A DNA stretch of 64,000 nucleotides from Bugula neritina (lineage: Eukaryota; Bryozoa; Gymnolaemata; Cheilostomatida; Bugulidae). The notes under the pieces were generated by a model. The model saw nothing but the letters and a program-made list of their open reading frames with translations, searched no databases and had not been told where the DNA came from. The stretch is from contig OZ037769.1 of NCBI GenBank assembly GCA_964035545.1, positions 12,576,633 through 12,640,632 on the forward strand, in the 5' to 3' direction. Shown here in pieces: positions 29,150 to 52,600 of the stretch. How positions within the stretch are numbered: the stretch's first letter is position 1; each line of letters begins with the position of its first letter. The position numbers and the translations under genes are program-made.

Positions 29150-30364
29150 ATGGCGTCTGATGTTACATGCAAACAATCCTCTGATGAAAGACTTTTGACA
29201 AATTTGGAACTCAATACAATAGTAGGTGTTCGAGCCCAAGGTAAGGACTCTGAAGGGAAATGCATTTATAATGTCTTGGGTACAGATTACAACATCCTTG
29301 GCACGATGCATGTGCACGAGCAAGAAGAAAGTGTAGAGTTTATGGACAACAGTGATAATGTATTATATTCAGCTGAAGGAGGCCTTTTCTGTAGTGATGA
29401 AAACATGGCCCTGTGGGGATTCGATCAGAATGGCTCAAAATTTAAAATAGCTCGGCTTTATCACACTTGGATTAAATATTTTCCCAACGGGTCAGCATGT
29501 GAAAGCTCAGAACTTGATATTGTACACTCTCCAGAATTTTCTGTCACCAATAAAAAAATTGTGGTCAAAAATTCGAGCGGAGATGTGGTAACTGAATTTG
29601 ATCAAAAAAGTAGTTCAGTTGTAACAATGTTCACAGTTCCAACATGGTCGGGAATTGTCAGATCAATCATGATAATGTATTCTCTAAAGATCTATTACTC
29701 AGTATATCAGCTACATTTGAATCCCATGCCGCAAAACATCCTGAAAGAATTGCCAATTGCACAACGAGGTTCGAATATCTCTTTGGAGTGTATTCTAGAA
29801 GATGTGAAGCAATTGAGACTAAGAGCTGCTTTTAGAGATAAAAAAGGAGAGCGTCTCTTTACTGACATCTTGGATGGATGCTCTGGAAACATAAAGATGG
29901 TTGCTGAAGAAAGTACCCAATGCCAGTCTTCAAACGTAGACATTAGAGATGAGTTTGGCTATCTGCAACTGCATTGTTCCTTTGGTACAGAAGATGTTGC
30001 TACTACTATAAGAGTTTACAATAGTTGTGAAACACTTATTGGAATAATTCGTAAAGATGAAGATGTTGGTTGCTTTATCATACTAGATGCGATTCAAGAC
30101 AAACCTTGCTACTTAATCCGAATGACAACTTCTCCAGTTATCTTATTCCAGGTAGCACATGTCTGTTTACCTGACCAGATTATAGCCCAGATCTACGAAG
30201 ACCGATACACCGTGATTGTGAATATGAATGGTGCAACCATAGAGTCTCAGCAGAAAGCACTACTCCTGGTTTTCGCTCACCTACAATCTTTTAAACTGCT
30301 AGAAAACAAACAGCCTTTTCCGCCAGCTGTGGATAGTTATCCTTACAGGATTTCAACTGTGTAG
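29150..30364 (+). CDS. Scramblase/tubby-like superfamily protein, copy 1 (intronless)
   Basis: 404 aa. The start at 29150 was chosen because the paralogues begin at the same aligned position in the same context (GTAAAAATGGC); the open frame continues upstream to 29048. Two repeated domains are visible. The C-terminal one resembles phospholipid scramblases in order of motifs: a VYxSCxxLxGxIR segment, then F.ILDA, then an IAxIYEDRYTV strand and a final hydrophobic helix (QQKALLLVFAHLQ). The N-terminal domain (NVLGTDYNILGT ... MRSIMIMYSLK) looks like a diverged second copy. Scramblases and LURP-like proteins share the tubby fold; lipid or membrane binding is therefore plausible, activity is not shown. 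No signal peptide. AATAAA at 30454. Roughly half identical to copies 2 and 3. Family call is inference. Confidence 0.75.
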   Translation: MASDVTCKQSSDERLLTNLELNTIVGVRAQGKDSEGKCIYNVLGTDYNILGTMHVHEQEESVEFMDNSDNVLYSAEGGLFCSDENMALWGFDQNGSKFKIARLYHTWIKYFPNGSACESSELDIVHSPEFSVTNKKIVVKNSSGDVVTEFDQKSSSVVTMFTVPTWSGIVRSIMIMYSLKIYYSVYQLHLNPMPQNILKELPIAQRGSNISLECILEDVKQLRLRAAFRDKKGERLFTDILDGCSGNIKMVAEESTQCQSSNVDIRDEFGYLQLHCSFGTEDVATTIRVYNSCETLIGIIRKDEDVGCFIILDAIQDKPCYLIRMTTSPVILFQVAHVCLPDQIIAQIYEDRYTVIVNMNGATIESQQKALLLVFAHLQSFKLLENKQPFPPAVDSYPYRISTV

Positions 30365-31786: not shown

Positions 31787-33013
31787 TTATGCGCTGGATG
31801 GTCTGTAAGGGTAGCTAAAGGCTACTGGGGGATAAGGATGCTTGTTCTCTAAAAGTTTGAATGCCTGGATGTGAGCAAAAATAAGCAGCAATGCTTTTTG
31901 CTGTGGCTCCATTCTCGTGTCAAAGTCAAGAACAACTGTATATCGATCTTCGTAAATTCTGGCTATAGGCCTCTGGGGCATGGAGATTGTACTTGCCACT
32001 TGGTAATAGAGAAATGGGCAGGTTTTTCTTTGAATAATCAAGCAAATTTTGTTGTAAACAGCATCTAAAATTACAAAACTGTCAGCATTTTCCCTTCGGA
32101 TAAAACCGACTAGCGATTCACACTTGTCATATACGCGTACAGTTGGAGCAATATCTTTTGTCCCGAAGAAGCAACTAATTTGAGGAAGACCAAATTCGTC
32201 TTTAATGTATAAGCTAGATTCTTCACATTGAACATTTTCTTCAGCAACCATTTTTATTTGCCCGGACTGTCCATCTAGGACATCAGTAAACAAAAGCTCT
32301 CCCCTTAGATCTTTGTATGCGGGTCGTATTCTAAATCTTTGTATGTTATCGAAAACGCAAGAGAACGGTGTGCTTGGGTCACATCTTTCAGCTGGTAGCT
32401 CAGACAGGATATTCTGCGGCATTGGGTTTTGATGGAGCTGGTAAGTTGTGTGGTACATCTTTAGAGCATACAGCACCATAATAGATCTCATACACCCTGA
32501 CCAAGAGCATGTCGGAAGCTTGAGGGAAATAAATATTGAGCAACTTTTCTGTGATAACTCTACCACAACCTCTCCACATGAATTCTTAACAGAAATGATT
32601 TTATCCTTCATCATGAAGTCTGATGAATGCACCATGTTGAGCTCAGAACTTTGAAAAGTTGATCCGTCAGCGAAATATACAATCCAGGCATTATAAATTC
32701 GAGCTATTTTAAACTTTGCTCCTGTTCGATCAAATCCCCAAAGGCCCATGTTTTCACTTGGGCAAAAAAGCCCGCCTTCCGCAAAATATAAGACTTTGTC
32801 GGTTTCATCTCTGAATTCAATAGCTTCGTCTTCCTCATTCACATGCAAGGTTCCAAGTATGTTGTAATCTGTACCCAAGACATTGTAAACACACTTTCCT
32901 TTACAGTTTCTACCTTGAGCTCTGATGCTAATTGTCTGGTTGGACTCCAAGCTCGCCAATAGGTTCTGGCTGCATGATTGAACTTGGTTACAGGAAGTGA
33001 CACTCAATGCCAT
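31787..33013 (-). CDS. Scramblase/tubby-like superfamily protein, copy 2 (intronless)
   Basis: 408 aa on the minus strand; start at 33013 (MALSVTSCNQVQ), in the same position and context as copy 3. Same two-domain plan: domain 1 with NVLGTDYNILGTLHV, FAEGGLFC, WGFDRTGAKFKIAR and a hydrophobic CMRSIMVLYALKMY end; domain 2 with VYDKCESLVGFIRR, FVILDA, IARIYEDRYTVV and QQKALLLIFAHIQ. About nine residues in ten match copy 3, so the two arose recently or are kept alike by conversion. Cys-rich for a cytosolic protein. No intron, frameshift or stop. Function unknown; membrane-lipid role is inference from the fold resemblance. Confidence 0.78.
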   Translation of the reverse strand: MALSVTSCNQVQSCSQNLLASLESNQTISIRAQGRNCKGKCVYNVLGTDYNILGTLHVNEEDEAIEFRDETDKVLYFAEGGLFCPSENMGLWGFDRTGAKFKIARIYNAWIVYFADGSTFQSSELNMVHSSDFMMKDKIISVKNSCGEVVVELSQKSCSIFISLKLPTCSWSGCMRSIMVLYALKMYHTTYQLHQNPMPQNILSELPAERCDPSTPFSCVFDNIQRFRIRPAYKDLRGELLFTDVLDGQSGQIKMVAEENVQCEESSLYIKDEFGLPQISCFFGTKDIAPTVRVYDKCESLVGFIRRENADSFVILDAVYNKICLIIQRKTCPFLYYQVASTISMPQRPIARIYEDRYTVVLDFDTRMEPQQKALLLIFAHIQAFKLLENKHPYPPVAFSYPYRPSSA

Positions 33014-33281
33014 TTTTACCAATTTTTGTCGTTTTTTTATCAAAAAGCTTCTTGTCTTTTAGATGTTCAAGTGATGATTGTTATGTAAAGCACAATATGC
33101 ATTATTTGCATTTTTAAAAAAGTGGCTTCACAAAATTCTACATTTTAAATGATGATATTACTGTAAAAACAAAACATAAATATAGATAGACCAAGACACA
33201 TAAAATGTACTGAATACAAAAATACTATCGTCCATGGTGATGCTAAAATCATCAGCTGCACATTCATATGATAATGCAATA

Positions 33282-34033: not shown

Positions 34034-34245
34034 ACTCACGCACGCAAGTTTATAGTCACTATCCCTGTGAGAAAACCCCAGATAGAAAGGGTTTTTGTTA
34101 AAGCGGGCTAAGGACTTATTTAAGATGAGGCACAGGAGCAACTATGACCAGATGCTCTTCCTAACATCAGCCTTTGTCCAGGCTTGAACCCATGACCTCG
34201 TGTTTACTAGGCAACCGATCTAACCCCTAGACCACGGCTGCTCCC
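34034..34245 (-). mobile_element. tRNA-derived SINE (family 1)
   Basis: Full-length copy in opposite orientation to the one at 33479. The pair sits between the divergent scramblase-like copies 2 and 3. Confidence 0.88.
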
Positions 34246-34850
34246 TAAATTAAAACATGTAAATGTTGTATGGTAAAGAAATTCATGTATGGTTGTCTTA
34301 ATTGCAATGCAGTGTTATTGAGTTTCTTTATTACATAGGTTGAAGTTTTTATAGTTGTTGCTAATATGCCAGGTAAATTAATTCAAAGGTTTAAGCTAAA
34401 AAAGAAATTTTTCACAAAAATTATTTTATACAGTTAATTCTATGATGAAACTCTAAGCAGAATCAATAACACATATATAACCTCGAAGAAGTCAAATTTC
34501 CACTAATTTTAATATATTTACTTTGGCTTGCGTTTCATATTTATAATTTACAAAAAAAAACCAATTTGCAGGTAATATTATATGCACCAAATCAACTCCT
34601 AATAAGGTAACAACTATATATGGACAGTTTCTTACAAATAGTTATATTTAATTTTTGACATAGAAAAACAAACCAAATTGAAAATATAATAACAAGGTAA
34701 CATAATCTAAAGTAGCTACAAAAATTTAAAATATTGCAGCTTCTTAGCATTTTTTAAAAATGTAAGATATGTGGACAATAATGCTTTGCATGATGATTGT
34801 TTAAAAATAGCTCATTCTTTTCAAAACACGATATTGAAAAATTAGTAAAA

Positions 34851-36077
34851 ATGGCATTGAGTGTCACATCTTGTAACCAAGTTCAATCATGCAGCCAGAA
34901 CATATTGGCGAGCTTGGAGTCCAACCAGACAATTAGCATCAGAGCTCAAGGTAGGAACTGTAAAGGAAAGTGTGTTTACAATGTCTTGGGTACAGACTAC
35001 AACATTCTTGGAACCTTGCATGTGAATGAGGAAGACGAAGCTATTGAATTCAGAGATGAAGTCGGTGGAGTCCTTTACTTTGCGGAAGGCGGGCTTTTTT
35101 GCACCACTGAAAACATGGCCCTTTGGGGGTTTGATCGCACAGGAGCAAAGTTTAAAATAGCTCGGCTTTATCATGCCTGGATTGTATATTTCCCTGATGG
35201 ATCAACTTTTCAAAGTTCTGAGCTCAACGTCATGCATTCATCGGACTTTATGATGAAAGACAAAGTGATTTCTGTTAAAAATTCATGTGGGGAGGTTGTG
35301 GTAGAATTATCACAGAAAAGTTGCTCAATATTTATTTCTTTCAAGCTTCCGACATGCTCTTGGTCAGGGTTCATGAGGTCCATTATGGTGCTGTATGCTC
35401 TAAAGATGTACCACACAACTTACCAGCTCCATCAAAACCCCATGCCGCAGAATATCCTGTCTGAGCTACCAGCTGAAAGATGTGACCCAAGCACACCGTT
35501 CTCTTGCATTTTCGATAACATACAAAGATTCAGAATACGAGCCTCATACAAAGATCTAAGGGGAGAGCTTTTGTTTACTGATGTCCTAGATGGACAGTCC
35601 GGGCAAATAAAAATGGTTGCTGAAGAAAGTGTTCAATGTGAAGAATCTAGCTTATACATTAAAGACGAGTTTGGTCTTCCTCAAATTAGCTGCTTCTTTG
35701 GGACAAAGGATATTGCTACTACTGTGCGAGTGTATGACAGCTGTGATTCGCTGCTTGGGTACATTCGAAGAGAAAATGTTGACAGCTTCAGCATCTTGGA
35801 TGCCGTGTACAACAAAACTTGTATTCTGGTTCAGAGAAAGACCTGCCCATTCCCTTACTTCCAAGTGGTAAGCACCACATGCGTACCAAACAAGCCCATA
35901 GCCCGCATTTATGAAGATCGGTATACCGTAGTGGTAGACGTGGAGTGTAACATAGAGCCTCAGCAGAAAGCATTGCTCCTTGTCTTTGCCCACGTTCAAG
36001 CCTCCGTGCTTCTGAATAACAAGCAGCCTTATCCAGCAGTTGTTTGCAGCTACCCTTACAGGCCTTCTACTGAATAA
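34851..36077 (+). CDS. Scramblase/tubby-like superfamily protein, copy 3 (intronless)
   Basis: 408 aa, start at 34851 as in copy 2 (an upstream in-frame extension to 34797 is not conserved). Same two tandem domains as its paralogues, with the C-terminal domain showing the scramblase-like order VYDSCDSLLGYIRR, FSILDA, IARIYEDRYTVVVDVE and QQKALLLVFAHVQ. Nearly identical to the inverted copy 2; the homology continues weakly for about 100 bp upstream (TTTTTAAAAATG, GTAAAAATGG). AATAAA at 36211. Being intronless among split genes suggests an ancestral retrocopy followed by local duplication. Molecular function not known. Confidence 0.78.
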   Translation: MALSVTSCNQVQSCSQNILASLESNQTISIRAQGRNCKGKCVYNVLGTDYNILGTLHVNEEDEAIEFRDEVGGVLYFAEGGLFCTTENMALWGFDRTGAKFKIARLYHAWIVYFPDGSTFQSSELNVMHSSDFMMKDKVISVKNSCGEVVVELSQKSCSIFISFKLPTCSWSGFMRSIMVLYALKMYHTTYQLHQNPMPQNILSELPAERCDPSTPFSCIFDNIQRFRIRASYKDLRGELLFTDVLDGQSGQIKMVAEESVQCEESSLYIKDEFGLPQISCFFGTKDIATTVRVYDSCDSLLGYIRRENVDSFSILDAVYNKTCILVQRKTCPFPYFQVVSTTCVPNKPIARIYEDRYTVVVDVECNIEPQQKALLLVFAHVQASVLLNNKQPYPAVVCSYPYRPSTE

Positions 36078-36437: not shown

Positions 36438-37238
36438 GCCTATTCTCATCGCTACAGATACAAAAGTTGAACAAATTTTTGGTAAATAATCACAGCATGC
36501 TTATGTCTGGCCTCAAAACCAAAGCAGCATGAAATGGAGCAAAAAATATTTTTGATTGCACATGCAATTATGGAGCAATGCCTATAAAAAGGGTAAACTT
36601 GAATCATGAACACTCTGCTGTGCTGTAGGCTGGCATGTTGCAGAAGCAAAGCATTATGAAACAATTTTATCTTCACATTCTTTTCTCTGATTAAATTAAA
36701 AGTTAAGCCAAATAACATGTAAATTGTTCATGCTTTTTTTTCAGTTTATTTTTCATGTTTCATTGTTATGTACAGCAGGTAAAATCGTTTTTGCCTTGTA
36801 GTTTAGTTATAAATGTATGTGAAACTGAGTTTAACAACCATTACATTACAAACATGAAGTTAATAAAAATTCATTGCAGACTTAGAAGCAAGAGAGCAAG
36901 CTGGTGTGTCCGAGAAGCAAAAGAATGTTCAGCAGGCTAGAAATTTGCAGGCAGAAGTAAAGATTAAGAAAAGAGGAGAACAAGCTGCTAGAGAGGGAGC
37001 AACTTACACGCCGAGCAGGTTTTACTGAGAGAAGAATTAGCTAAAAAACAGAGGCTATATTTTGCAGGTGTTGATAGGTAAGTTCTTAGACTGTGGTCTT
37101 GTGATTATACTACTTGTTAGGTGCCAACACATTTCATGTCATGCTTGCTTACTTAATAACAAGTCAAATTTTGTGTTATTCAGTAATATACGTATATATG
37201 TGTACACACATACGTGCAAGAGCTCGCGCACACACACC

Positions 37239-37322
37239 TTACATATATATTACATATATATGTAATGTATATTACATATATATTACATATATATGTAATA
37301 AATATGTAATGTATATTGCATA
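37239..37322. repeat. (TATATTACA)n simple repeat
   Basis: Repeated ATATATTAC/ATATATGTAA words; partly self-complementary. Confidence 0.8.
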
Positions 37323-37739
37323 TAGCATAAAGTTTGTGGATCATTTATCGCTAAAGTAATAGTAATGTAACTGCATACGTATGAGTATTGCAATAATATA
37401 GCTGATGCTAAATTCTGTTGTTTTTGTATATAATAATTAATATACTCCTTGGATAATATGTTATGCTAAAATCTGTTGTAGGCTGAACAATGGTGCATGC
37501 GGCTCCCTAAGGATAAAACTGAAATGGAAATGTTCCAAAACTGACACTACTAATGAGGGCTACACTGAAGATGTTATCAAGTCTGTATTTTCTAAAGTAA
37601 GTGTAAATATTTCCTACTATGTCATGCCGGAACCATTAACACGAGAGAAAGTGTGATTTTGTGTGTATATCAATGTGTGTAGTTATACCTTTTCTTCTAA
37701 TAGTATGTAGCTGTTTTGATATAGTAAACTTAATATCTG

Positions 37740-38140
37740 TGAATATTATGGTAAGTATACAAATATTATAAGTAAATAAACACAAATACTATAGTAAGTA
37801 TACAAATATTATAAGTAAATAAACACAAATACTATAGTAAGTATACAAATATTATAAGTAAATAAACACAAATACTATAGTAAGTATACAAATATAAGTA
37901 AACAAACACAAATACTATAGTAAGTATACAAATATTATAAGTAAATAAACACAAATACTATAGTAAGTATACAAATATTGTAAGTAAATAAACACAAATA
38001 CTATGGTAAGTATACAAATTTCATAAGTAAGTAAACACAAATGCTATAGTAAGTATACAAATTTCATAAGTAAGTAAACACAAATGCTATAGTAAGTATA
38101 CAAATTTCATAAGTAAGTAAACACAAATGCTATAGTAAGT
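37740..38140 (+). repeat. Minisatellite carrying a consensus 5' splice site, DNAJC17 intron
   Basis: About nine units of ~43 bp, core CTATAGTAAGTATACAAAT plus ATAAGTAAATAAACACAAA. Each contains GTAAGTAT, a full 5' splice-site consensus. The array begins ~145 bp after the real donor at 37597 (GTAAGTGT). Confidence 0.88.
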
Positions 38141-38725
38141 ATACAAATGTATCACATGATTCAAGCACACACATTTGTAATTATGTGGTGTATTTGTTTG
38201 CGTTTTAGAGATATATAACTTATTTTTCTATTTAAAAAATTGCTGTTGTTATATTTATATAATACAAAATAATATATCAACAGAATTGACATTTACTGCT
38301 ATTTACAGTATGGGGATGTCTTCATTATACTTATCAGCTCTGAAAGAAATGGATCTGCTATTCTAGAGTTTGATAGCCTCTATGCTCAGGTAAAGCGTTC
38401 ACAGATCCTGCTATTAATAATAAATAACAATTGAATTCAATTTTGTTGCATATCATACGGTTATCATCTAAAATATCACTATTTAGGCGGGTTGGTATAC
38501 TAGTTGTGAAATATTGTATAAGCTAATATTTTTGACCTTTCACAGTAGGTCAAATGGCATTATTGGCTCTATATTTTACTGTTGCTTTTTGTTAATGTAG
38601 GAGATAACTCTATGACTCACCATGTTCCCCCTTATTTACCACATTATATATTTATAGTCACATGATACAACTTTCTCATGTACTCTATATAGTATTACTT
38701 TGTGCTTACTTTCTCCTTACTGTAA

Positions 38726-38737
38726 GTACACACACAC

Positions 38738-38806
<69 letters not shown>

Positions 38807-38999
38807 CGCACACACACCACGCATACACACACCACGCACACACACCACGCATACACACACCACGCATACACCATACACACCACGCATACACACACCACGC
38901 ATACACACACCACGCATACACCATACACACCACGCATACACACACACCACGCATACACACACCACACATACACCATACACACCACGCATACACACACAC

Positions 39000-39041
<42 letters not shown>

Positions 39042-39146
39042 CACGCACACACACCACGCACACACACACCACGCACACACACACGCACGCACCACGCGCA
39101 CACAAACACCACGCATACACACACCACACCACACACACACACACAC

Positions 39147-39227
<81 letters not shown>

Positions 39228-39234
39228 ACACTAC
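38726..39234. repeat. Long (CA)n-type microsatellite with CCACGCATACACA variant units
   Basis: Pure CA blocks at both ends enclose a tract of CACCACGCATACACA-type higher-order units. It lies in the DNAJC17 intron before exon 4 and is open in several frames by composition only. Confidence 0.95.
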
Positions 39235-40204
39235 TTAGAAAGCGTCAGCTAGTGTACTTGGTGTGTAGCCGCTGTGTATGTGTCATATACACGGCTAAAG
39301 CTGATGTGTTGCAATTTTTATATTCAGTTCATCTTTAGGCGGAGTCATTAGAAAGTGAGTCTGGGCTGTCAACATGTCCGTTAATTGTGTCCTGACTGAG
39401 TGGAAAACCTTTGCAATCCAAATCCGAAACGTTAAATGCATCTCCAACATCACCTCCTGAGAATGTAAGAGTTTTAACTTTTGTAAATTTATTAGATATT
39501 CTAATTTCATAATTTAAGTAATTAATTTAATAATTAATTGTAACAACTAACTCAATGACTTACTAATCTTATGGCAAACTTTTATCAAGTGCTGTGGGTA
39601 GATTTAATTTCTCAGAGATGTGCAAATTTGTTCGATTTTCAGCTCACAGCTCATGCTCTAGTTTTGTGATTTTAAAAATCTCATTCCTTTGTGAAATTGT
39701 AGACTCTTTTAATTTTTTTCATGCATCTTAAAACTGGCTGGTTTTAATGGTTTGACATATGATTTGCTTTAGTGTACTAATTGTGTGGGTGATAAATAAC
39801 ACTATATCTTTGCCAATGATCATTTATTATACAATATACGATGTTTTATACATTCTATGAGTAGAAATTATGCCAACTAATATCTTAAAGTAATGCAAAA
39901 GCAAAAATAATGCATATTAGGAATAATTACATTTATGAAAAAAGCAATAATATAATATAATTATGATAATAAAAAGTAATAAAATTATTATTTTTATTAT
40001 CAATTTTTAATAATACCACCAATCGAAAGGCAATTGTCAAGTATAATAGCACAACTCAGCCAGTAGGCCCTGTAAGAGTCTACACCCCACTGATAACACA
40101 TTGCTTTTTAATCATGAAACCACAAATGAGTGGGCATTAACCTTTGTCCCCCCCCCCTTAATTTCAATTAAAGTAGTTTTTTGCCATTGGCACACTTGAT
40201 ACTA

Positions 40205-40313
40205 CAGGAGAGAGGTGTCCGATTTCTTCAACTTCTCTTTCCTTGACCCCGGCTTTGGCATTGGCTCAATGATATAATTAACATCTGTACTTCTTTCCGA
40301 ATGCTTACCGAAA
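40205..40313 (-). other. Orphan exon-like segment (possible terminal exon)
   Basis: After a good acceptor (TTGTTGCAG) at about 40316 the minus strand reads LFGKHSERSTDVNYIIEPMP, then a basic stretch and stop TAG. I find no companion exons and do not recognise it. It lies antisense inside a DNAJC17 intron. Could be chance. Confidence 0.25.
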
Positions 40314-41316
40314 AGCTGCAACAACAATATAAGGATAATAAGCTATAATTTGCTAATAAAAATTCATTTTTCATGCTAGACAACAAAACAAAACTTTCTT
40401 AGGCTTTGTTATATTTGGCGCTAATTCTACAATTCATATTGGTATTCCAGGTGCTTTATATTGCAAGACATTCTCTTTTTTATTAGTATCAAAACATTAC
40501 GCCATTTTTCTGTCTTCAACAAAACTTTAATGCAACTGGCGTTTTTTGTAGTTTTGCTTAAAGTACAATTTTCTTGATGTTATTTTTAGCTGATTTTTTA
40601 TAAACCTGATAAGTAGAATGCATGTCCTGTTGGCTTTTAAAGGTAGTTTAGATGCAGTTGGTGTGGCATTGATTGGTCTATGGTGTCTCTTACGTTCTGT
40701 GTTGTGGCTTAGCGACTACTTTTTTTTAACAAACCTGAGTCATTAATCCCAGTTAGTTTCATCTGTAACCTCAATTGTGGAAGCAAAAAAAATTAGTCAT
40801 AATTTTACTGGCTCAACATTTAAACATAGTTCAACTACTACAGCCCAGGCTGCTATAAAAACAAGTTGACATCATGTGTTGTGAATAGCTGTATAGTTTA
40901 GAAGTTATTTTGCACTGCCTGCCTGTTTTAATTGCTCTATATCTCTACAATAATATGAAATTGTATAACATATATACTCTCATAACATGTAAATGAACCA
41001 TCAAATTACATTATTCCTATAATGTTTATTTTGCTAGCTTATTCAGTTTTGCTCTCAATATTTTTAAGTATTTTTAAACGTTTACCTGCTGAAATGTAGT
41101 CTTCTATTAATTATAATTTTTTATATTTTTGCAGTTAGTTGAAAAGTTTTATTTATTTATATTTTACAGGAAGCTTACAAAAATACCGTGGACTCCTCTA
41201 CAGACACTGATTCTGAGGACTTTGTGTTAAATAAGTTAGCCAAAGCTGAAGCCAGTATTCAAATAGTTGAACCTTTGCCTGCTGAACTCTATGATAATCG
41301 ATCAGGAAATTCCTAG

Positions 41317-43418
41317 CGGGTAGCAGCTAACACCCACTGGATTTATAATACATATCTGTTTTATGATTGCAGTCTAAACTGTGAAACGTGTCTATCCAAT
41401 TACTGTAATGTGGCCGCTTTTTCAAAATGGCTGCACTTGACTCAATCAAAATGTATCTTCTGAAGCTTAACCCTGTCAGAATAATTTCTCCATAAGCAGC
41501 TCAGAGTTGGGGGTGACTGAGTGCAATAGTTTGGGGTTTCGGGTTTGGAGTTGGGGGTTCAGAGTTCCAACCTAAACCTCCAGTCAAACTGCTACTCGTT
41601 TTGTTACTAACTATGAGAGTCTCTTTTAACCTTGACCCTGCCAACAACTCATTTTAGAGCAGGTCACAACGTTTAGGTGTTTTCATATCACTTTTGTTTG
41701 AAATTGATTCAATGTTTTAGCATCTCTTGTTTGTTAACTGCTGTATCTGGTGTTCCATCCATTTATTTTAGTCAATAAAACTAATTATGACAACCAACAT
41801 TTGTTTTTCCCTGTATCTTCATGTATCTCACAGGAGAACATGTTTATACTAATGATCTAACCCTGTATAAGGAAAATAGTTTTTTGCTAATACTTTCTTG
41901 GTATAGTGTGTCAAAATATTGTCTCTTTTTATCATTTGAACTTTTGACTGGTGAAAAGGAGCATATTAGTCCATTAGCACTTGACAAAGGTAGCCTAGTA
42001 GGTATAAATCCGGGTCCACATTCTTAGATTTCCTCTATACCTGCTCATAAGAAACATTTTGAGGTTATTTTAGGCACAGTGGTAATAAAACGTACCCACA
42101 TATTGACTAAATATGTATAGTCTTGTGTTACACTAAATCTGAGCCTCTTTTAAACAATTTTTTGAAACTTATATAAGCATTAGTTTGAACCAATCAAAAG
42201 GTTTAAATGATTTCAAAACTTACATAACTAGCAGCTCGGTTTTATGGTTTTTCACTGAATAAAAGCTGCATGTATATATACAACCATTTTATGACAGCGA
42301 TCTGCCCGCACCATTACTCATAATAATAGGAAGTAGGTAATAAAAAACCCTCCTCCAATGAAATCAGCTGCCGAAGAACATTTCAAGAGCATGGTTCATT
42401 TGCTTGGCGATAATGGGCGGAAGAGCTATATTTAGCTATATGGCAATGATTACCTTTTTCATGGTCACAGCTACTGCCCCCTGACAGTTCCTATATACTT
42501 AAACTAATAGTTTAGCTTTACCAGGAACTTTGAAATACATTCAGTGCCAGCATGGTGCCTGAATGTCTTGGGAATAGTATAGTTATAACTTGTTATACAA
42601 TCAAATTTAATGCCAATTGACGTTATAAAACCCGACATCTTTGGCATGTCTGACCATATCGAAAATTGCTAGACCTGAATCATAGATGCAACACCAGGTG
42701 ATGGGGGTCAATATCGAGTGCCAATGTAAAAAGGTATTGGAGCTGGTTTTTTTACTAATTATTATAATGCAACAAGTTTTGTTTTAGACAAAGTACTTTT
42801 GGAGTCTTTACCAATTTGTTCCCATCAATTTAATATAGGAGGTAAAATGTTTATGAGTTTGTAAAATAACCTAAAACTACTAATCATTCACTTTAAAGTT
42901 TTTTTAAATGGATATTCTAATTTTAGCTGTGATTTCAGCCATAAAGGAGACATATTTTACAGCTTGCATTCCTGCGACTTTTTCCTTATTATTATAGTAA
43001 TTACCAAGATTATGTTTTTAGTCAACAGCTTTTCACTTATTATAGATCATACTAAATCTTAACTTGGTGTATGCGTAAAGGAGCAAATATAGATAAATGT
43101 GCTTTAAATAAATCATAAATAAAAAAATATATCAATGTTATATATTATAGACCCATCCATAAAAACAATGATGTTTTATATTGGAGTGAAATGATGATTT
43201 TGTAATATTATAGGATATAAATATTAAAAATAGTAGGCAACCTGTCACAAAAATGTTAAACTCATTTATTCTGTACCAAAAATAGCAAAATGTGATCTAA
43301 TATGATGGGTCAACAAGATTTTAAAATGGAAGATAGGCTGATTTAACTGAACAGTCTGTGTATAATGAAAAATCACCAATAAACAACAAAAAGCGCCTGT
43401 TCTTCTTCTAAAAAAAGA
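41317..43418. other. DNAJC17 3' flank and intergenic spacer
   Basis: Contains a single arm of the foldback MITE family (about 41480-41560; CATAAGCAGCTCAGAGTTGG). Otherwise AT-rich without a supported gene. Confidence 0.5.
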
Positions 43419-43629
43419 CTCACACAAGTTTATAGTTGCTATTCCTGTGAGAAACTCTTGATGGAAAGGGTTTATGTTAAAGCGGGCTAAGGACTTATTT
43501 AAATAAGGCACAGGAAAAATTATGACTGGATGCTCTTTCCAACATCACCAATGGTCTTTTGTCGGGGTTCGAACCCATGACCTCGTGTTTACTAGGCAAA
43601 TGTTCTAACCCCCAGACCACGGCTGTTCT
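43419..43629 (-). mobile_element. tRNA-derived SINE (family 1)
   Basis: Minus-strand copy with B box GGGTTCGAACCC inside, body TGGAAAGAGCATCCAGTCAT and 3' tail ending in CTTGTGTGAG. Confidence 0.85.
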
Positions 43630-43744
43630 TTTTTAAGAGTAATGTATTTAATTAGTTCTAATCAAAACTATAAATTAGTTATTTTAATTAACATAATGAA
43701 ATTGCCGACTAATTTATTTAAGTCATTTAGCTAGAACATATATC

Positions 43745-44015
43745 ATCATCATCTTGCTGTCTGTCTAGTCCGACTATGACTTCTGGTGTATCATTTGTCT
43801 CCATTTGGGTCTGTCAAGTGACAGCATTTGCCATTTGCCGAGAGATATTCCCTTGCCTTTAAGGTTGCATTTAATGGTATCTTTGTAACGGAGCCTCGGT
43901 CTGCCAATGTCACGGGAGCCTTCTGTTAGCTGTGAGTATAAAACCTGTTTTTGGATCCTGGTGTTGTCTAATCTGTTGATATGTCCGGCCCATATATAAA
44001 CCAGCCTAAACAATT
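43745..44015 (-). mobile_element. LINE 3' fragment (non-LTR reverse transcriptase C-terminus)
   Basis: Minus-strand ORF with WAGHINRLDNTRIQKQVLY, GRPRLRYKDTIKCNLKGKGI and KWQMLSLDRPKWRQ, the conserved C-terminal tail of many animal LINE reverse transcriptases. It ends at a short ATGATGATGATA tail, as expected for a LINE 3' end. 5'-truncated. Confidence 0.8.
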
Positions 44016-44621
44016 ATTTCGTAAGCATTTTTTCCCAGTTTTCAATCATATCATGTAATAGTACTATAATAAACTCTTGAAAGCAAACATTTATGTTGCA
44101 TAGTATTTTTGTTGCATGCGTCTAATGATAACTACTGAGGTTATGGACTATAATGTAGCATGAGCTTCAAGCATGCAGTCAAACGAAAAGTTAAAATACG
44201 ACTAAGCAAAGACCTATACTTGCAAAATGCAACTGAAACAAGCTAAAACAATAATTTTTCATAGAATGGAATTCTATAGAATTATATTAGCATTCTTTAT
44301 AGACTATATGTGCTTCTAATGTTATGTATATGATGCATTGAGATTCAAATAAAATATTACTGCAGAGGTCAGGCTATTCCTCATCAAATGTTAATATGCA
44401 AAATAAAAACTTATTATCCACATTTTCTATTGTTGCTTTAATTCTGATAATATTGTTTTGCTGTTATATATATAAATACTAACCAGGATATGCGCTTCTC
44501 ATGCTTTGAGAAATTTTACATATTTGGTTGAACAACACATGCAATCTTATTGTATATCAAAATCCTGTTTTCCATTCTGGCAACACTGCCAATCTAGTAT
44601 AGATGAACTTGGGACATTTTT

Positions 44622-44643
44622 TATAAAATAAAAAGTATATAAG
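44622..44643 (+). promoter_or_regulatory. TATA-box candidates for the TGF-beta-like gene
   Basis: TATAAAAT at 44622 and TATATAAG at 44636, 50-70 bp before the ATG at 44694. Position fits a short 5' UTR, supporting 44694 as the true first coding exon. Confidence 0.45.
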
Positions 44644-44693
44644 AAAGAGATAGGAACTCTCTTTCTATACATTGGTTAGCCTGTTTAGTCACC

Positions 44694-46848
44694 ATGTCTG
44701 TTTACATGTTCCTGATCGTCTTTATCGTTATGGGTGATCAAATTACAGCCTGCTTGCCAACACCGACGGCAGCGAAGGCAGCAAGAGCGAAAACATCACC
44801 AACATTGAAAACATCAGCAAAAGATGATTTGGCTTTACTGGAGTCTATTCCACACGAGGAAACAAGAACCAGGTATAAATCTATAGTTAAATAAGCTGTT
44901 GGGGTGTCTGTTTCTAGATAATACGTTATTCTATCACAGTTGCAACTTTGGGGAATGTTTTGTTTAAATGTACTTTTAGCTTGCAACAGAGCTATTGCAC
45001 TTTATATAACTAAGAATACAATTATTACTATAAAGAAGTTCAAACTTGTGTATAAAATATTATAGTGATGTCAATCTCGGGAATTGCATCAACATAAAAT
45101 AGATGATTGCTGTGTCACTTATCAAGAGTCTAGGATAGTTTGGAGAGCAGCTTTGGAGTAAAATACTATTTTACTAAAATACTATACGGTTCAATACATA
45201 AATATGTTTGATTGGTGCGTAAGCTAATTTCATAAAGTTACTATAAGATCTCATGTGGTAATGATTTCATGGAAGTATAATAAAAATTTGTATAACCCAA
45301 CTAAATAATAATGACTTGCTCATTGTCTTTTTTATCTTTTCCTAAAGCTGTACATGCACAGCTGTTCATTGGAGCCAAATAGTAAAAAAGTAATATTAAT
45401 TTCCTAATGTGAAGTACTTGATATATAAGAAAAAAACCTATAATTTAAAATTTAACTTTAGTTTAAAATTGTTAGATTTTATTAAAATAGCTATAAAACA
45501 ATTTGCAAGAAACTGAAAGTTGCGTGAATAAAAATTGTTTGAAAAGATATACGTTTTAGTGCTAGCAAAACTGAAATATATATAGTAGTCTATTATACGC
45601 TTTTACCCTTTTTTTACAGAGCAAGTATTACTTAAATATATTATTGCTTTTATAGTGCTTATATTATTATATAAAATTAAATTAATGGAATGAGAATGTA
45701 AATTATAGATTGAAAAATTATAATTTGATCACAAATACTTTTTTGCAAATAATATACAATATAAAACACACAACCATAAATGAATAACTACTCCAGAAAG
45801 AGAAAATAATTAAATAGCATTACGGTTTATTAATTTTACACAGGATTGATCATTCTAGAACTCAGTTGCAGTAAACTTGTCTTGTGTAATACACATGTCA
45901 TCAACTGGTGAAAATATTAAATCAGACTTGGTAATGCCTCCTATCAGTTTATCTACCTGGGTTTTATTTACAAAATGCTTATCAACTCACTATAATATGA
46001 CAAATCATCCTCCATAACTCAACATTGAAATGAAACATATATTAAATGTCTGCAGTTATTTTCACCAGTTTGATTTATTGCATTTTATTTTGTAGAGAAC
46101 CAAGAAAAAATCCGTTTACCGGCTTTGACTATTGTGAGGAAGGGCAGACTTCATGCTGCCTCCACCCATTTGCTAAAAGGGCCTCAGAACTTGAGCTACC
46201 TTATGTTTTTCCTCAAATCATACCTCTCAACTACTGCCAAGGGCACTGTAAGTTCTTGCAACATAAAGGATGTTCTGTCTATAAAATTGCAGTATTGATA
46301 AATTCTACTTTTATATTTTTATCTGAAAAATTATTGCCTTCACTGGGGTTCGAACCCGAGACTTCCGGCTTGCAAGCAAGTGTGCTAACCATTACACCAC
46401 GGGAACTACTGGGAAAGCACGACACTACACCATCGTTATTCAGCTACACGTCTCTCACTGATGTGCTATAATCTCGTGTCGTTGTCTCCTCTGAGACTCA
46501 AACCTCAGGCTTAACCAACTAGCTTAAGTGAGCTTGCTAACCGCTACACTATATAAAGTCTACTAAAGAACCTCAAAGCTACAGTCTGTTTACTATTAAA
46601 TATATTAAATTTTCACAGAACTTTTTTTGTTAAATTATCTCTAAAAACAATGCCCGGCATTATTAGATGTCATGTGTTTAACAGGTCGCTTAGAAGGCAG
46701 CGTTCATTCTCAGCTGCTGAGCAAGGACTCCTCTTGCTGCCACGCCACAGAGTTTGAGCCTATCATGGTTACGTACTACGACGGCAACGGTGTACTGCAA
46801 TCAGAGTGGCTGGATGGAGCTGTCGCAACCAAATGTGCATGTTCATAG
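44694..46848 (+). CDS. Compact TGF-beta superfamily ligand
   Basis: Secreted cystine-knot growth factor by family. Exons 44694-44872, 46096-46247, 46685-46848 join in phase to 164 aa. Residues 1-19 form a signal peptide (MSVYMFLIVFIVMGDQITAC). A minimal furin site REPR (60-63) would release a ~101-aa mature domain with the full cysteine pattern: C73, CC80-81, YCQGHC (107, 111), CC128-129, CACS (161, 163), i.e. nine Cys as in the TGF-beta/activin/myostatin group, ending CxCS. Odd points: the prosegment is only ~40 aa against roughly 200-300 usually, and the loop between CxGxC and CC is short (16 residues). TATA-like boxes lie just upstream and AATAAA at 46991, so the gene appears complete. Either a novel short-prodomain ligand or a gene whose longer 5' exons I missed. 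Confidence 0.85.
46327..46414 (-). mobile_element. tRNA-derived SINE head (family 2)
   Basis: Minus strand: CCCGTGGTGTAATGGTTAGC, anticodon-like CTTGCAAG, B box GGGTTCGAACCCC. In intron 2 of the TGF-beta-like gene. A second, degenerate tRNA-like head follows at about 46489-46556. Confidence 0.7.
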
Positions 46849-48315
46849 ATAATCCTTGGTTATACAATGAAGGTGGTTGCGGACAATATTTTCGCTATAT
46901 AATTATAATTATATATAAATAATTATAAATATATAATAATTATAATATTATTATGAAAAAATATCAACTATTGTTTATGTTGTTTGAATGAATAAATATA
47001 AGAAGTTTCTATAAATGATAATATAAATAATTCCTATTTCTTGGTTTTTTATACAGAAATGCTTATCTTCCAGATGTTGTGTTTATTTGGGAAACTTATT
47101 GTCTCAACCGCTATCTGTTTAAGCTAGAGAACAACATGAGTAATAAAAGGAGCTAAAAATACTATTTCTTAGAAATTAAAGGTTTATCTTGTATACTTTT
47201 TTTACTAACAAAGGGATGTGCGTATCATTCCCTTTAATTACCTGAAATATCACTACTTGGATTTGCTTTGCAATTCAAACTTGTGATATTTTTAATCAAC
47301 ATATATAAAAATATCTGCTTATATATTTAGCAAATACAATAATTTATACAAATACAATATAATGAGCTTACCATGATAGATAATAGCTAATAGCTAATAG
47401 TCCTTATTGCTGTATCTAATGCTTTTTACAGAAGTCTGTTAGAAATCTTAGCTTAGGCATTCTACTGGCAATATATACTTAGGCATGTACTATATGCCCA
47501 TATTTATGATGCTGTTATGGTAAAATCAACACATATACCTATAATAGTTTCTATAATACAGTCTTTACATCAGCCACCTCATTGGCTGAACCTTTCTATA
47601 TAATACACATAAAGTCATTAATTAAAAGTCACATAATTGAAAGCAATAATATTTTTCTGATTTGTTGCACCTGCTTGATTTCAACAACTAGGAAGTTATT
47701 CTTATAAAACATTTACATTTATTGAAATGGCATTTACTGCAGCACAAAACAACAGAATAGATTACACTAAAATAGCTGGCTGATGCTGCCTGTCACCATG
47801 TTTGGGGTGATGTTTGTCATGCTGTCCTGTTTTTGCTGCTGTTAAACCAAGCGTTCCCACACCTTTACTTTTATCTCAGTGTCTTTCATTTTATTTTTCA
47901 GCTAAAAATAGAGCTTCAATAAAAAATGTGTCAGAAGATAACTTCTTAAATTTATATTTTGCTGATTCTACTGGGCAAACTATTGTTACAGTACACAAAC
48001 TATATCTATTAATTGTTACACAACCATGTACATGATGTGTTACTGCAATATATTCTATAAAATTCTTAAATCGCTTAATTCTTAAACAGTAATTATTTTT
48101 ATAATATTATTATTTTTTATTATTATTTATTATAAATTTAGAATTTTTTACGGAAGTTTCACACCATAAGAAGTATTCAGAGAGTATTAACACCCATGCC
48201 GACAGTCATAACGTTCCCATAACATTTTCCAGGGGCTTTATTCTGAAACCCTTTCTATTATTATACTCAACAAGCACACAACTACAAATCACACTATAAC
48301 CTCAAGTATAATTAC
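46849..48315. other. Intergenic, AT-rich
   Basis: 3' UTR of the TGF-beta-like gene to about 47010, then nothing supported. Confidence 0.5.
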
Positions 48316-48515
48316 CATATCGTAGGCAGCATGAAACAACTGCTGCTGCTCCTTGCCATCTTTCCCAATTGGTTTATAAGTGTGGAGCTTCTTATTAATC
48401 TCTTCATATTTCTTACGGATGTCCTTCATTATTTTTTTGATTGGAGTTCGAGTTGGCCTTCTGCCAAAAATATCCTCCAGGTGTTTCCTGAAACCCTCCA
48501 CATGTGGGCCATAGG
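48316..48515 (-). other. Orphan coding-like exon
   Basis: On the minus strand an acceptor (ACAGCTCAG) and a donor (GATATG|GTAATT) bound 200 nt open in one frame: AYGPHVEGFRKHLEDIFGRR, TPIKKIMKDIRKKYEEINKK and KEQQQLFHAAYDM. Helical, charged, natural-looking composition. I do not recognise it and see no partner exons, so it may belong to a long-intron gene or be a pseudo-exon. Confidence 0.45.
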
Positions 48516-48519
48516 CTGA

Positions 48520-48625
48520 GCTGTATATTATGTATACGATGTATATTATGTATATTATGTATTATGTATACTATGTATATTATGTATACTATGTATACAT
48601 GTATATTATGTATATTTTATTATAT
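48520..48625. repeat. (TATGTATAC/TATTATG)n microsatellite
   Basis: Tandem TATGTATATTATG words starting directly at the acceptor side of the orphan exon. Confidence 0.8.
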
Positions 48626-49474
48626 ATTTTAACACATGCAAGTTTAAAGGATTGCTCTATCTTGTCTAATAAATGGCCATTTAGGTCAAACACACATAAT
48701 ATTGTGTTTTTCTAAGCATGCATTGACAAAAAGCATTTGACCAAAGGTAGAAAAAGTTAGTTGAAGTTGAGGGTGTAGATTGGTAACAGCCAAAACGCCG
48801 ATTTTGAAATGAGCTGGGAAATGTGACGTAACAGCGCCAGCATTCCTGCTGGTCACGTGACTATACAAATGAATAACTATAGAAATATGACTGTGAGATG
48901 TGATCTTTCAGCTCGAAATTTGTATATTCATAGAAGTGCAAATGTGAATTATCTCAATCTATAGTTTTTTGACATTTTAAATAACATGTATGTGATAACA
49001 TTAGGCCATATTTTGCTTGTAAGCATAGAAAAAAGCATTGCAAAAACATGCATTCTTTAGGATGAATGCCTGCGATCGATCTAAACTAGGTCAGATTGTG
49101 CAATATTACGGGCACACCAAAGCTGACCTATATAGCGCACTGTAACTGCTTGAGCGTTATTGGTTGATGTTGTGCTCAGCAACCTTGAATACTAGCGTTA
49201 TAGTTAGCACGTGCAGCATAGTTACTGGCGTTCACACGTCACGTATTAGGCTATTCTTTTTCATGGCTGAAAATTTTACCTCCCTCAAAATTGGAATTTT
49301 GAAAAGCTGTTTTCTAGGCACATATCCCTTTGCAAAGTCACAATTGTTTGCATACACATTAGATTATAGTTCATAATTATAATGTGATTGTAATAAACTA
49401 AGATTGAGCAATCCTTTAAATGAGTTTATTGATCTATAATCATCAGTGCTCTCAACACAAGTAGTGCGTTATTA

Positions 49475-49514
49475 TATATATATTATATTATATTATATAT
49501 ATATATATATATAT
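49475..49514. repeat. (TA)n microsatellite
   Basis: TATATTATAT then pure TA units. Confidence 0.9.
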
Positions 49515-49550
49515 GCAAGTTATCTATGTTGTAGAAGATTAGTCAATGTC

Positions 49551-49670
49551 TTACACAACAGCTTCAGTCTCATCAGCATTGCTGCCGTCAGCAGCTAGCT
49601 TAGCATCCTGGGACAGTTTCTCAGCCCATTCTCTCAGATCAGTCTGAGCTTTCCTGAAGTTTGAGTGCAA
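49551..49670 (-). other. Probable terminal exon of an unplaced minus-strand gene
   Basis: After the acceptor ATATGTTTTAG the minus strand reads 39 codons to TAA: LHSNFRKAQTDLREWAEKLS, then an Ala/Asp-rich tail ending ETEAVV. Higher GC than its surroundings and helical in character. No upstream exon identified; family unknown. Confidence 0.45.
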
Positions 49671-52600
49671 CTAAAACATATCCAGTTATATAACACAACT
49701 TAAGTGAACAAAAAGGTATATTTCATCACTTTCTATATGGAAATAAACCATGCAACAGAACACCATTTTCTCCTTAATAAGTTATTGCAGTTATACATTG
49801 CCTATAGTTTATACACGGTCTTGTATAGACAAAAGTAAATAGTATTGTGCTTTATTGTGTTTAGAGTTCATAGTTGTGCACAGAGGTCCAAAATAATTAG
49901 AGTTTAATTCAAACAATCAAATGGTTTAATTCTTTATTATAATAAACAAGATGCAAATGGTTATAAATCTTAGCCTCCAGCTACTGGCTTTAGGTTAGAG
50001 CTGTTAAACAAATCACCATAGCAACAATGTTGTTATTCTTTTCATCTTTACTAACCACCAATACTTGGAATTATCCCCCTCTACATTGCTTCACTTAGTA
50101 CTTACCGCCCAGACAGCGTGTATTAAGCAAGTGTCAAGACATCTCACTGTACCATCAATATAATTTATTATAATATAAAATAATGCAACATAATGTAATG
50201 TAATATAAATAAAATGTAATATAATATAAGTACAATGAGTGCAACAGACCACTTAATGTTAAAACGAATGTACATTATTATGAATTAAAATCTGGGCTGA
50301 AAAGCTATTAGTAAATTGATAAAGAAGTATTATATAGTTTTGATTAGGAAATCATCTAGTATAAATAAGGTGAAGTAATACTCATTATAAACTAAATTTA
50401 ACGTCGAGACCTGTGCAATGCTTTATTTGATAAAATAGCTTTCTTTACAGTTGCATAAAAGGTATTTAATTAGTAAATTTAAAAAAGTTACGAGATTGTA
50501 GACAATTCAGCAACTATGAAGTTGAATCATATTCTTATACAAACTTCATAAAATTAAGAAGTAATAAATTTTTTTTATCAGTTTTCATTTAATAGTATTT
50601 AATAATTAGTGAAAAATGGTTTCATCATAATTATTACACAAAAATGATTCGATCTTTCCAACAGAATGATTTTCTTTTACATGAAACAAACACCATAGGC
50701 TCAAAAAATGCACCTAAGACAATCCTTCTTGGTCAGCAAGTGTTTATGTTCGACAGGTACGACAGATCATATTGCAGTCCGTTACAGCCATACTGAGTAG
50801 TGCTAATTGATCTACACTAGATATAGTCTGAGCACAAATTCTACGCTTTCTCCACGAGATCTTTACTGGAGAAGTCCTGTTTCCACACAAACTCCGCAGC
50901 ATAGCCCTAGATTTCCCAAGACTCCTCACAAGTGTATACTAGCAGTGTACCCTAGTCTAAGCCGTCTTTCACATTGATCACGTGGAGATAACTAAAAGTT
51001 TGACTCATGATTTACAAGAGCACACATCCATAAAGACTGTTTGCAACTGGAGTGTTTTCAATATGATTTGAAGTTTCAATACAGGTGATCATTGTACAAG
51101 CTTCTATACTATCAAGAATCGTTTTACAAACAGCTGTGAGTTGGTGGTGACTAAGTGCAACAGTTTGGGATTCTCGAGTTTAGAATGGGGAGGGGGAAAA
51201 ATTCCAACTTAAACCCCTCAACTCTAATCTCAAGGATCCCAAACTACTGCACTCAACCACCCCCAATTCAGAGCTGCTTATAGAACAGTTCTATTGCCAT
51301 ACCATGATTATGTAACATGTATAAACAACAATTGTTATTGTAAACATCACAGCAATGGCATCAAAATAACACAATCTATAAAACAGATGATGATGCAATT
51401 CTACAATTTAGATATACAGCAGAGGAATTCGTGATTCCTTTTACTATAAAAAAGCTTATTTACGTTATCTTCTGATGTGCATTTTATCAAGCATTTACTA
51501 ACTTTAATCAGCGATTTTACCTTCAAGGACTCTAGATTTATTTATTTTTAGGTCATATAACTAATCAGCTGCTTCTAATTAAAACCTAAAACTTCCCCAG
51601 TTTAAACTATTCCAATAATCAACATTATACTATTACACATGGCTGTAATTATACAGTTGTATAATGTATTCTTGATTACTTTTTTAGTTTATGTACTGCA
51701 AGAGATAAAAACACACGCCAATTACGACAACATAATTAATTATCCACTCTTTTATATATATATTCTTTTTTAATTTTCTTGACGATATTTTATCATAAAA
51801 TCTATAATTTGCTCAATGCTCGACACACTCAACATATCAACCGTTGAAGAGTTTTCAAACACTTCCAATCAAATTTTAGCAAACATCCATAAATAAACAT
51901 TTCTTCCGTGAAAAAGGTCTGCCAAAACTATTTAACAAACGGACACAAATTAATACAATGCCGGATGAATTTAAAATCTTTGAAAGCATTTGTAGAATAA
52001 CTTGCTGTGTTTAGCAACATATTTGATGAATTCAGCAAAGGAAGTTTTTACTCTGATATGAAGTAGTGACTAGAAGTCTAAGCAGCTGTAAAAGTGTTCT
52101 TTGGTTCTGATTAATGGTGTCATCCCACTTAGACGATTTCCAGTTAAACGATATTTATATATTTTAGTGTAATATATGTATTTTATGCTATTATTTAGCA
52201 CATAATAGCAAGCAAAGAAACCACCAGCAAGCCACTTATAACAGTAACAATGCTTTTATAAGAAGCCATCTTGCATACATCTTAAACTTTAAGGTAAAAG
52301 ATAGATAAAATATAATAAGAAAAAGTTGTAATATAGCAGTATGCGATATACTATGAAATGCATTTGTGCATTTTATTCTGTTATTCTGAATATAAAATAA
52401 ACTGTAGCTAAATTAGTATTGAGTTAAAGCAAATAGCTGGCTTGGTACCTTATTTCATGTTTAGCAGTAAATGCGACAGTTATATTTGTATATTACTATA
52501 TATATTGTACCAAAATTAAAAACTCGTTTAAGTGGGATGAAATACACAGTCATTCTTGCAGATGAAGTATCTAAAAGCGATAAGAATTTACTATACAAGG

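What the first reader, a model, noticed from the sequence alone, without database searches (positions are those of the whole stretch)
44694..46848. TGF-beta superfamily ligand with almost no prodomain
164 aa in total: signal peptide, ~40-aa prosegment, REPR site, nine-cysteine mature domain with a shortened loop before the CC pair. TGF-beta ligands normally need a long prodomain for folding and latency. TATA-like boxes and AATAAA bracket the gene, so it looks complete. It may represent an undescribed short-form ligand subfamily.
Basis: partly seen in the sequence, partly recalled or inferred. Interest (0 to 1): 0.75.

Follow-up and report, generated by a model that had tools for sequence, protein, structure and literature searches.

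The report
Short-precursor TGF-beta-like ligand gene pair
A moss animal carries two near-identical genes for a TGF-beta-like signalling protein that lacks the long helper region most such proteins have; a few vertebrate nerve growth factors of the same superfamily have a similar short layout, so it is an unusual variant, not a new kind.

Summary
Three exons (44694-44872, 46096-46247, 46685-46848) encode 164 aa: signal peptide, ~44-aa prosegment ending in REPR, and a nine-cysteine domain (Pfam TGF_beta 38.7 bits, cut-off 27). The genome is Bugula neritina or a very close relative. New evidence: an intact second copy (170 aa, same exons) lies on another contig in a ~15 kb segmental duplication, with dN/dS 0.08 overall and 0.10 in signal plus prosegment. 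The short prosegment is therefore selected coding sequence. TATA-to-ATG is 92-94% identical between copies; no prodomain-sized coding exon shows upstream in the DNA the copies share, and no prodomain match lies near. Three GDF8-like paralogues in this genome do have prodomain exons.

Short prosegments are known in GDNF-family ligands (persephin RXXR at residue 60; here 63). No relative was found outside this genome, so a wider subfamily is unproven. Placement is unresolved: GDNF-, GDF15- and GDF8-like are all allowed. The loop before the CC pair is the shortest of 22 domains compared and finger 1 has no tryptophan, hinting at altered type I receptor and prodomain contacts. No transcript data.

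The parts
44636..44643 (+). TATA-like box (TATATAAG), 58 bases before the ATG
   Evidence: 50-base windows 44622-44671 and 44647-44696 are 92% and 94% identical to the second copy, against 84-86% just upstream (44572-44646) and 32-87% in windows within 44222-44596
44694..44872 (+). exon 1: signal peptide (about residues 1-19) and most of the prosegment; phase 2 donor
   Evidence: residues 1-62 dN 0.029, dS 0.284 against the C9 copy, Fisher p 5.7e-5
46096..46247 (+). exon 2: REPR cleavage site, CEEGQTSCC and YCQGHC half of the knot; donor splits the codon of the fifth mature cysteine (phase 1)
   Evidence: 7 silent and 0 replacement codon changes in the best 28-codon window
46685..46848 (+). 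exon 3: short heel loop, CC pair, finger 2, CACS and stop
   Evidence: 54 of 54 residues (split codon C111 counted) identical to the C9 copy in the alignment
46991..46996 (+). AATAAA, possible polyadenylation signal, not conserved in the second copy
36613..51427 (.). extent of the segmental duplication shared, with gaps, with G000:C9:6189703-6206396
   Evidence: blastn of the whole window against C9:6180001-6220000; pieces over 150 bases, 79-94% identical

Best explanation
A functional gene pair of Bugula neritina (or a very close relative) encodes a secreted, short-precursor TGF-beta-superfamily ligand. Shown by sequence: signal-peptide-like N terminus, ~44-aa low-complexity prosegment, RxxR, 101-aa nine-cysteine cystine-knot domain, two intact copies under purifying selection. 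Inferred: the protein enters the secretory pathway, is cut by a furin-like protease at REPR, forms a disulfide-linked dimer through the first cysteine of the CC pair, and folds without a large prodomain, so it is released without prodomain-based latency, as GDNF-family ligands are. Also inferred: since the finger-1 tryptophans are absent and the heel loop is cut to 16 residues while finger 2 keeps its usual length, the face that normally meets the type I receptor and the prodomain is remodelled, and receptor use is probably not the canonical one.
For: Pfam TGF_beta above cut-off. Second intact copy with dN/dS 0.08, 21 silent against 6 replacement differences, p 1.7e-9; the only indel in the coding part is an in-frame 18-base one in the prosegment. 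TATA-to-ATG stretch conserved. All 3 exons come out of a coding scan of the duplicated DNA with 0 replacement changes in their best windows. No prodomain match on this contig. Three GDF8-like paralogues do have prodomain exons (frames read; one of the three also gives PF00688 matches). Loop 16 residues against 22-35 in 20 other domains; finger 2 is 31 residues, as in GDF8, activin A and BMP2.
Against: No transcript, peptide or expression evidence. The TTTAG before TCACCATG (44684-44688) could also serve as a splice acceptor, so a 5' UTR intron or a far exon is not formally excluded. The RxxR has P at P2 and K at P1', not an ideal furin site (recalled rule). Missing tryptophans are not unique: 4 of the 11 other genes of this genome also lack them in finger 1, and all four have prodomain sequence, so the tie between missing tryptophans and missing prodomain is weak. 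The step up in identity at the TATA box is modest (84-86% just before it). Dimer formation and receptor use are inference; no structure was predicted.
Confidence: 0.7

Rival explanations
1. A natural antagonist: the ligand keeps a type II receptor-binding finger 2 but has lost the type I face, so it occupies type II receptors without assembling a signalling complex, much as engineered TGF-beta2 monomers with a shortened heel do.
For: Shortest heel loop of 22 domains and no finger-1 tryptophan, with usual-length finger 2. Engineered short TGF-beta2 forms (92-97 aa against 112) are among its matches. PMC11845725, passages read, says such a monomer keeps its TGFBR2 affinity and cites a paper whose title calls it a dominant negative; the heel deletion itself is recalled.
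Against: The CC pair, hence the interchain cysteine, is kept. Residues that contact type II receptors were not tested. Four other genes of this genome lack the tryptophans too.
Confidence: 0.25
2. A GDNF- or GDF15-like ligand that signals through a GFR-alpha-type co-receptor and RET rather than serine/threonine kinase receptors.
For: Persephin-like precursor layout. Best tree joins it to GDNF and neurturin (FastTree 0.81; ultrafast bootstrap 75, AU p 0.74). No tryptophan in finger 1, as in GDNF and neurturin.
Against: Nine cysteines with a CxxxxxxCC start; GDNF and neurturin have seven. Neurturin is only a weak, partial sequence match (E 0.13, residues 76-119). Placement on 136 columns of very divergent sequences may be long-branch attraction; GDF8-like (AU 0.36), GDF15-like (0.24) and other placements are not rejected. 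Neither the GFR-alpha family (PF02351) nor RET_CLD1 (PF17756) was found in the genome, but the control genomes gave none either, so that is inconclusive.
Confidence: 0.2
3. The gene model is incomplete: a normal prodomain lies on upstream exons joined by alternative splicing or a distant promoter.
For: A pyrimidine-rich stretch ending in TTTAG just before the ATG in both copies. The GDF8-like paralogues are multi-exon.
Against: A strong signal-like peptide starts at the ATG. The TATA-to-ATG stretch is well conserved. No prodomain-size coding stretch upstream in the aligned blocks. No PF00688 match on this contig.
Confidence: 0.08
4. A decaying or haplotypic duplicate without function.
For: Two copies; no match in the protein database, which does hold a Bugula and a Watersipora BMP2.
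Against: Both copies intact with dN/dS 0.08. The copies lie on different contigs of 17.7 and 10.9 Mb in a duplication with limits, pieces 79-94% identical, so they are not two haplotypes of one place.
Confidence: 0.04

Closest known systems
GDNF-family ligands, above all persephin
   Same: Short pre-pro part (persephin RXXR at residue 60, PMC7377943 passages; here 63); ~100-aa mature knot; no tryptophan in finger 1 (GDNF, neurturin)
   Different: Seven cysteines in GDNF and neurturin against nine here; finger 2 of 28 against 31 residues; heel loop 28-29 against 16. Persephin's own letters were not compared.
GDF8/GDF11 (myostatin) group, with three full-length paralogues in this genome
   Same: Nine cysteines, CC pair at the start, finger 2 of 31 residues, best solved-structure hits
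   Different: The paralogues have prodomain exons and the mature domain in one exon; loop 22-25 against 16
Engineered TGF-beta2 monomers (PDB 5tx2, 5tx4, 5tx6, 5ty4)
   Same: Shortened chain of 92-97 against 112 aa; that the heel is what was shortened is recalled
   Different: Engineered from TGF-beta2 and monomeric; the bryozoan protein keeps the CC pair
GDF15
   Same: Extra N-terminal cysteines in full-length GDF15 (recalled; the letters used start at CC); non-canonical GFRAL-RET receptor (PMC7299427 abstract in the listing)
   Different: Longer prodomain (recalled); loop 28; tryptophans present

Membership tests
TGF-beta superfamily growth-factor domain (PF00019) | Cystine-knot domain above the family cut-off | tested here: met
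   38.7 bits, cut-off 27, E 1.8e-9
TGF-beta superfamily growth-factor domain (PF00019) | CxGxC, CC and C-terminal CxC cysteines of the knot | tested here: met
   CQGHC, CC, CACS
TGF-beta superfamily growth-factor domain (PF00019) | Secreted and cut at a basic site | tested here: inconclusive
   Signal-like N terminus and RxxR present; secretion and cleavage untested
Canonical TGF-beta/activin/BMP precursors (PF00688 prodomain) | Large prodomain | tested here: not met
   Only PF00019 matched in the protein; no PF00688 match on the contig; no upstream exon in aligned blocks; ~44-aa prosegment
TGF-beta/activin/GDF8 branch | Nine cysteines with two extra at the N terminus | tested here: met
TGF-beta/activin/GDF8 branch | Groups with the branch in a tree | tested here: inconclusive
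   AU p 0.36 with GDF8-like, 0.15 with TGFB1, 0.13 with activin; the last two are excluded by RELL and ELW weights; the best tree is elsewhere
BMP branch | Groups with BMPs; seven cysteines | tested here: not met
   AU p 0.026 (SH 0.117 and KH 0.087 do not reject); nine cysteines
GDNF-family ligands | Seven-cysteine pattern without an N-terminal CC pair | tested here: not met
   Nine cysteines, CEEGQTSCC
GDNF-family ligands | Signals through GFR-alpha and RET | tested here: inconclusive
   PF02351 and PF17756 not found, controls silent; signalling itself not testable
GDNF-family ligands | Short prosegment | tested here: met
   RxxR at 60-63; persephin 60

The most novel reading that the evidence does not exclude
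A protostome lineage evolved its own prodomain-free, non-latent mini TGF-beta with a pared-down heel and type I face, acting as a natural type II receptor blocker or as a GDNF-like ligand outside vertebrates.
Probability: 0.3. Interest if true: 0.7.

Novelty: new variant of a known kind. Interest (0 to 1): 0.48.

Why it matters
If confirmed, it would show that a nine-cysteine TGF-beta-type ligand can shed its prodomain in evolution outside the GDNF family, and might link prodomain loss to loss of the surface that the prodomain and the type I receptor share. It would be a natural test of how much prodomain such a knot needs to fold, and a signalling gene of bryozoans that the protein searches here did not find recorded.

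Tried and rejected
Homologue searches: two of the three protein searches used this protein, whole (108 candidates, none at E <= 10) and words from the mature part only (no candidate shared three words). The third was a control with the genome's own BMP2/4-like protein: 80 hits, among them a Bugula neritina (99%) and a Watersipora subatra BMP2. So the database holds bryozoans, but absence is weak evidence for a short, split, divergent gene; where a contig length was given for the control hits it was 997 bases or more, so short transcripts may be missing.

A first ORF-based scan for conserved coding pieces (233 pieces, 7 passed) recovered only one of the three known exons, so it was replaced by a sliding 28-codon scan that recovers all three. 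That scan also flags five other short stretches: two on the + strand upstream (30 and 28 codons), one + strand downstream, two on the - strand; read, the two upstream ones look like no prodomain. It covered only the 13 aligned blocks.

Of the 15 PF00019 matches, 11 went into the domain table and tree; 4 were dropped: C1:28504292, C1:27464952 and C1:27465407 (split by introns) and C7:2962860 (domain cut short).

Considered and rejected: haplotig; pseudogene; CTCK-type cystine knot (von Willebrand factor E 0.005, against a TGF_beta match above cut-off). Structure prediction was not used: the tool takes proteins that the DNA gives letter for letter, and this one is spliced.

Paper searches on short or missing prodomains and on bryozoan TGF-beta ligands listed no paper whose title or abstract start describes this gene or a prodomain-poor bryozoan ligand; lists were capped (20 of 26, 8 of 18), and searches found no paper. 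Passages or a section were read of four papers: PMC11845725, PMC7017013, PMC13121700, PMC7377943.

Full report
WHAT IS THERE. The exons at 44694-44872, 46096-46247 and 46685-46848 join with GT/AG sites to one open frame of 164 aa; the seven other splice combinations printed contain internal stops. The protein has a hydrophobic N terminus, one RxxR (REPR, residues 60-63) and nine cysteines after it. Pfam TGF_beta matches at 38.7 bits against a cut-off of 27. The best solved relatives by sequence are GDF8 and GDF11 at E 6e-4 to 8e-4.

WHOSE GENOME. The genome's BMP2/4-like protein is 99% identical to a Bugula neritina BMP2 record, so the window is from that bryozoan or a very close relative. The genome has 15 PF00019 matches, two of which look like two exons of one gene. 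The window gene is not among them; its domain is split by an intron.

A SECOND COPY. A search of the genome with the protein finds all three exons again on C9. The C9 gene (6198171-6198367, 6198854-6199005, 6199350-6199513) encodes 170 aa with the same exon structure. It differs by 6 replacement and 21 silent changes plus one in-frame 18-base indel: dN 0.016, dS 0.203. By part: residues 1-62 dN 0.029, dS 0.284; the rest dN 0.0086, dS 0.155. Fisher p is 1.7e-9, 5.7e-5 and 1.4e-5. The two genes lie in a segmental duplication of about 15 kb (36613-51427 against C9:6189703-6206396, pieces 79-94% identical, in which the whole window was compared with C9:6180001-6220000). Two window pieces outside those limits, searched in the whole genome, gave no match near there among the 40 best candidates scored. 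This shows that the prosegment is coding and selected, and implies that this ATG is used.

IS A PRODOMAIN HIDDEN? Identity between the copies is 92-94% in the two 50-base windows from the TATA box (44636) to the ATG, 84-86% just upstream, and 32-87% in windows within 44222-44596. The frame of the ATG is closed by a stop just before 44643. A 28-codon sliding scan of the 13 aligned blocks flags all three exons with no replacement change in their best windows (silent/replacement 6/0, 7/0, 3/0) and five weaker short stretches; the two on the + strand upstream (37465-37554, 4/2; 40247-40330, 3/2) are too short and too far for a prodomain. The stretch 43359-44221 has no alignment to the C9 copy, so it was not scanned, but a coding exon shared by both genes would be expected to align. 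The genome-wide PF00688 search finds seven matches, none on this contig. By contrast, three GDF8-like genes on C4 and C5 have signal and prodomain frames before the mature exon (PF00688 matches for one of them). One of the three was compared with solved structures (GDF11 and GDF8 best); the other two join it in the tree (0.99). A possible acceptor just before the ATG leaves a 5' UTR intron open.

THE MATURE DOMAIN. In a table of 22 domains (2 copies, 11 other genes of this genome, 9 solved references) the heel loop between the fifth cysteine and the CC pair (or the single cysteine in its place) has 16 residues; the 20 others have 22-35. Finger 1 has no tryptophan; that also holds for four other genes of this genome, which do have prodomain sequence, and for GDNF and neurturin. 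Finger 2 has 31 residues, as in GDF8, activin A and BMP2. In known ligands the heel helix and the finger-1 tryptophans meet the type I receptor and the prodomain (recalled), so loss of both together with the prodomain is a coherent picture, but it is inference.

PLACEMENT. FastTree and IQ-TREE both join the pair to GDNF and neurturin (0.81; 75), but the AU test does not reject GDF15-like, GDF8-like, TGF-beta1, activin, C1:34788619 or other bryozoan placements. Only the BMP placement is rejected by AU (p 0.026), and not by SH or KH; RELL and ELW weights also exclude TGF-beta1 and activin. With nine cysteines it fails the GDNF-family pattern. GFR-alpha and RET_CLD1 were not found, but the control genomes gave neither, so nothing follows.

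WHAT IS KNOWN. Short prosegments are established in GDNF-family ligands: putative RXXR sites at residues 77 (GDNF), 95 (neurturin) and 60 (persephin) (PMC7377943, passages). A survey of spiralian BMP components reports many lineage-specific duplications and losses in bryozoans (PMC13121700, section 7 read); the words Bugula and prodomain do not occur in its main text. PMC7017013 (passages) parsed 45 TGF-beta family members of fly, mouse and worm plus mouse GDNF as outgroup into prodomain and ligand.

VERDICT. A real, lineage-specific (as far as these searches reach) short-precursor ligand pair: a new variant of a known kind. The subfamily claim and the mechanism await transcripts, relatives and biochemistry.

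Noticed in passing
29039-30364 (+), 31787-33058 (-), 34797-36077 (+): Three related long open frames of 441, 423 and 426 aa in mixed orientation; the one tested (34797) has no Pfam match. Its DNA matches the inverted neighbour at 87% over about 1.2 kb.
   Followed up: partly
22852-24296 (+): A repeat array open in all three forward frames over about 1.4 kb, an example of long frames that are probably not genes.
   Followed up: no
46919-47451 and G000:C9:6196694-6197209: The stretch downstream of the gene is 87% identical to a piece lying upstream of the C9 gene, besides its expected counterpart; perhaps a mobile repeat.
   Followed up: no
L031 (G000:C1:34788619-34788897): Another divergent TGF-beta-like gene of this genome: eight cysteines, only one of the CC pair, heel loop 22, ends CACV; best solved match GDF15, E 2e-4.
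   Followed up: partly
about 34038-34250 and 52116-52542: High-copy repeats of about 210 and 430 bases matching many places on several contigs, mostly at 84-92% identity (only the 40 best candidates scored).
   Followed up: no
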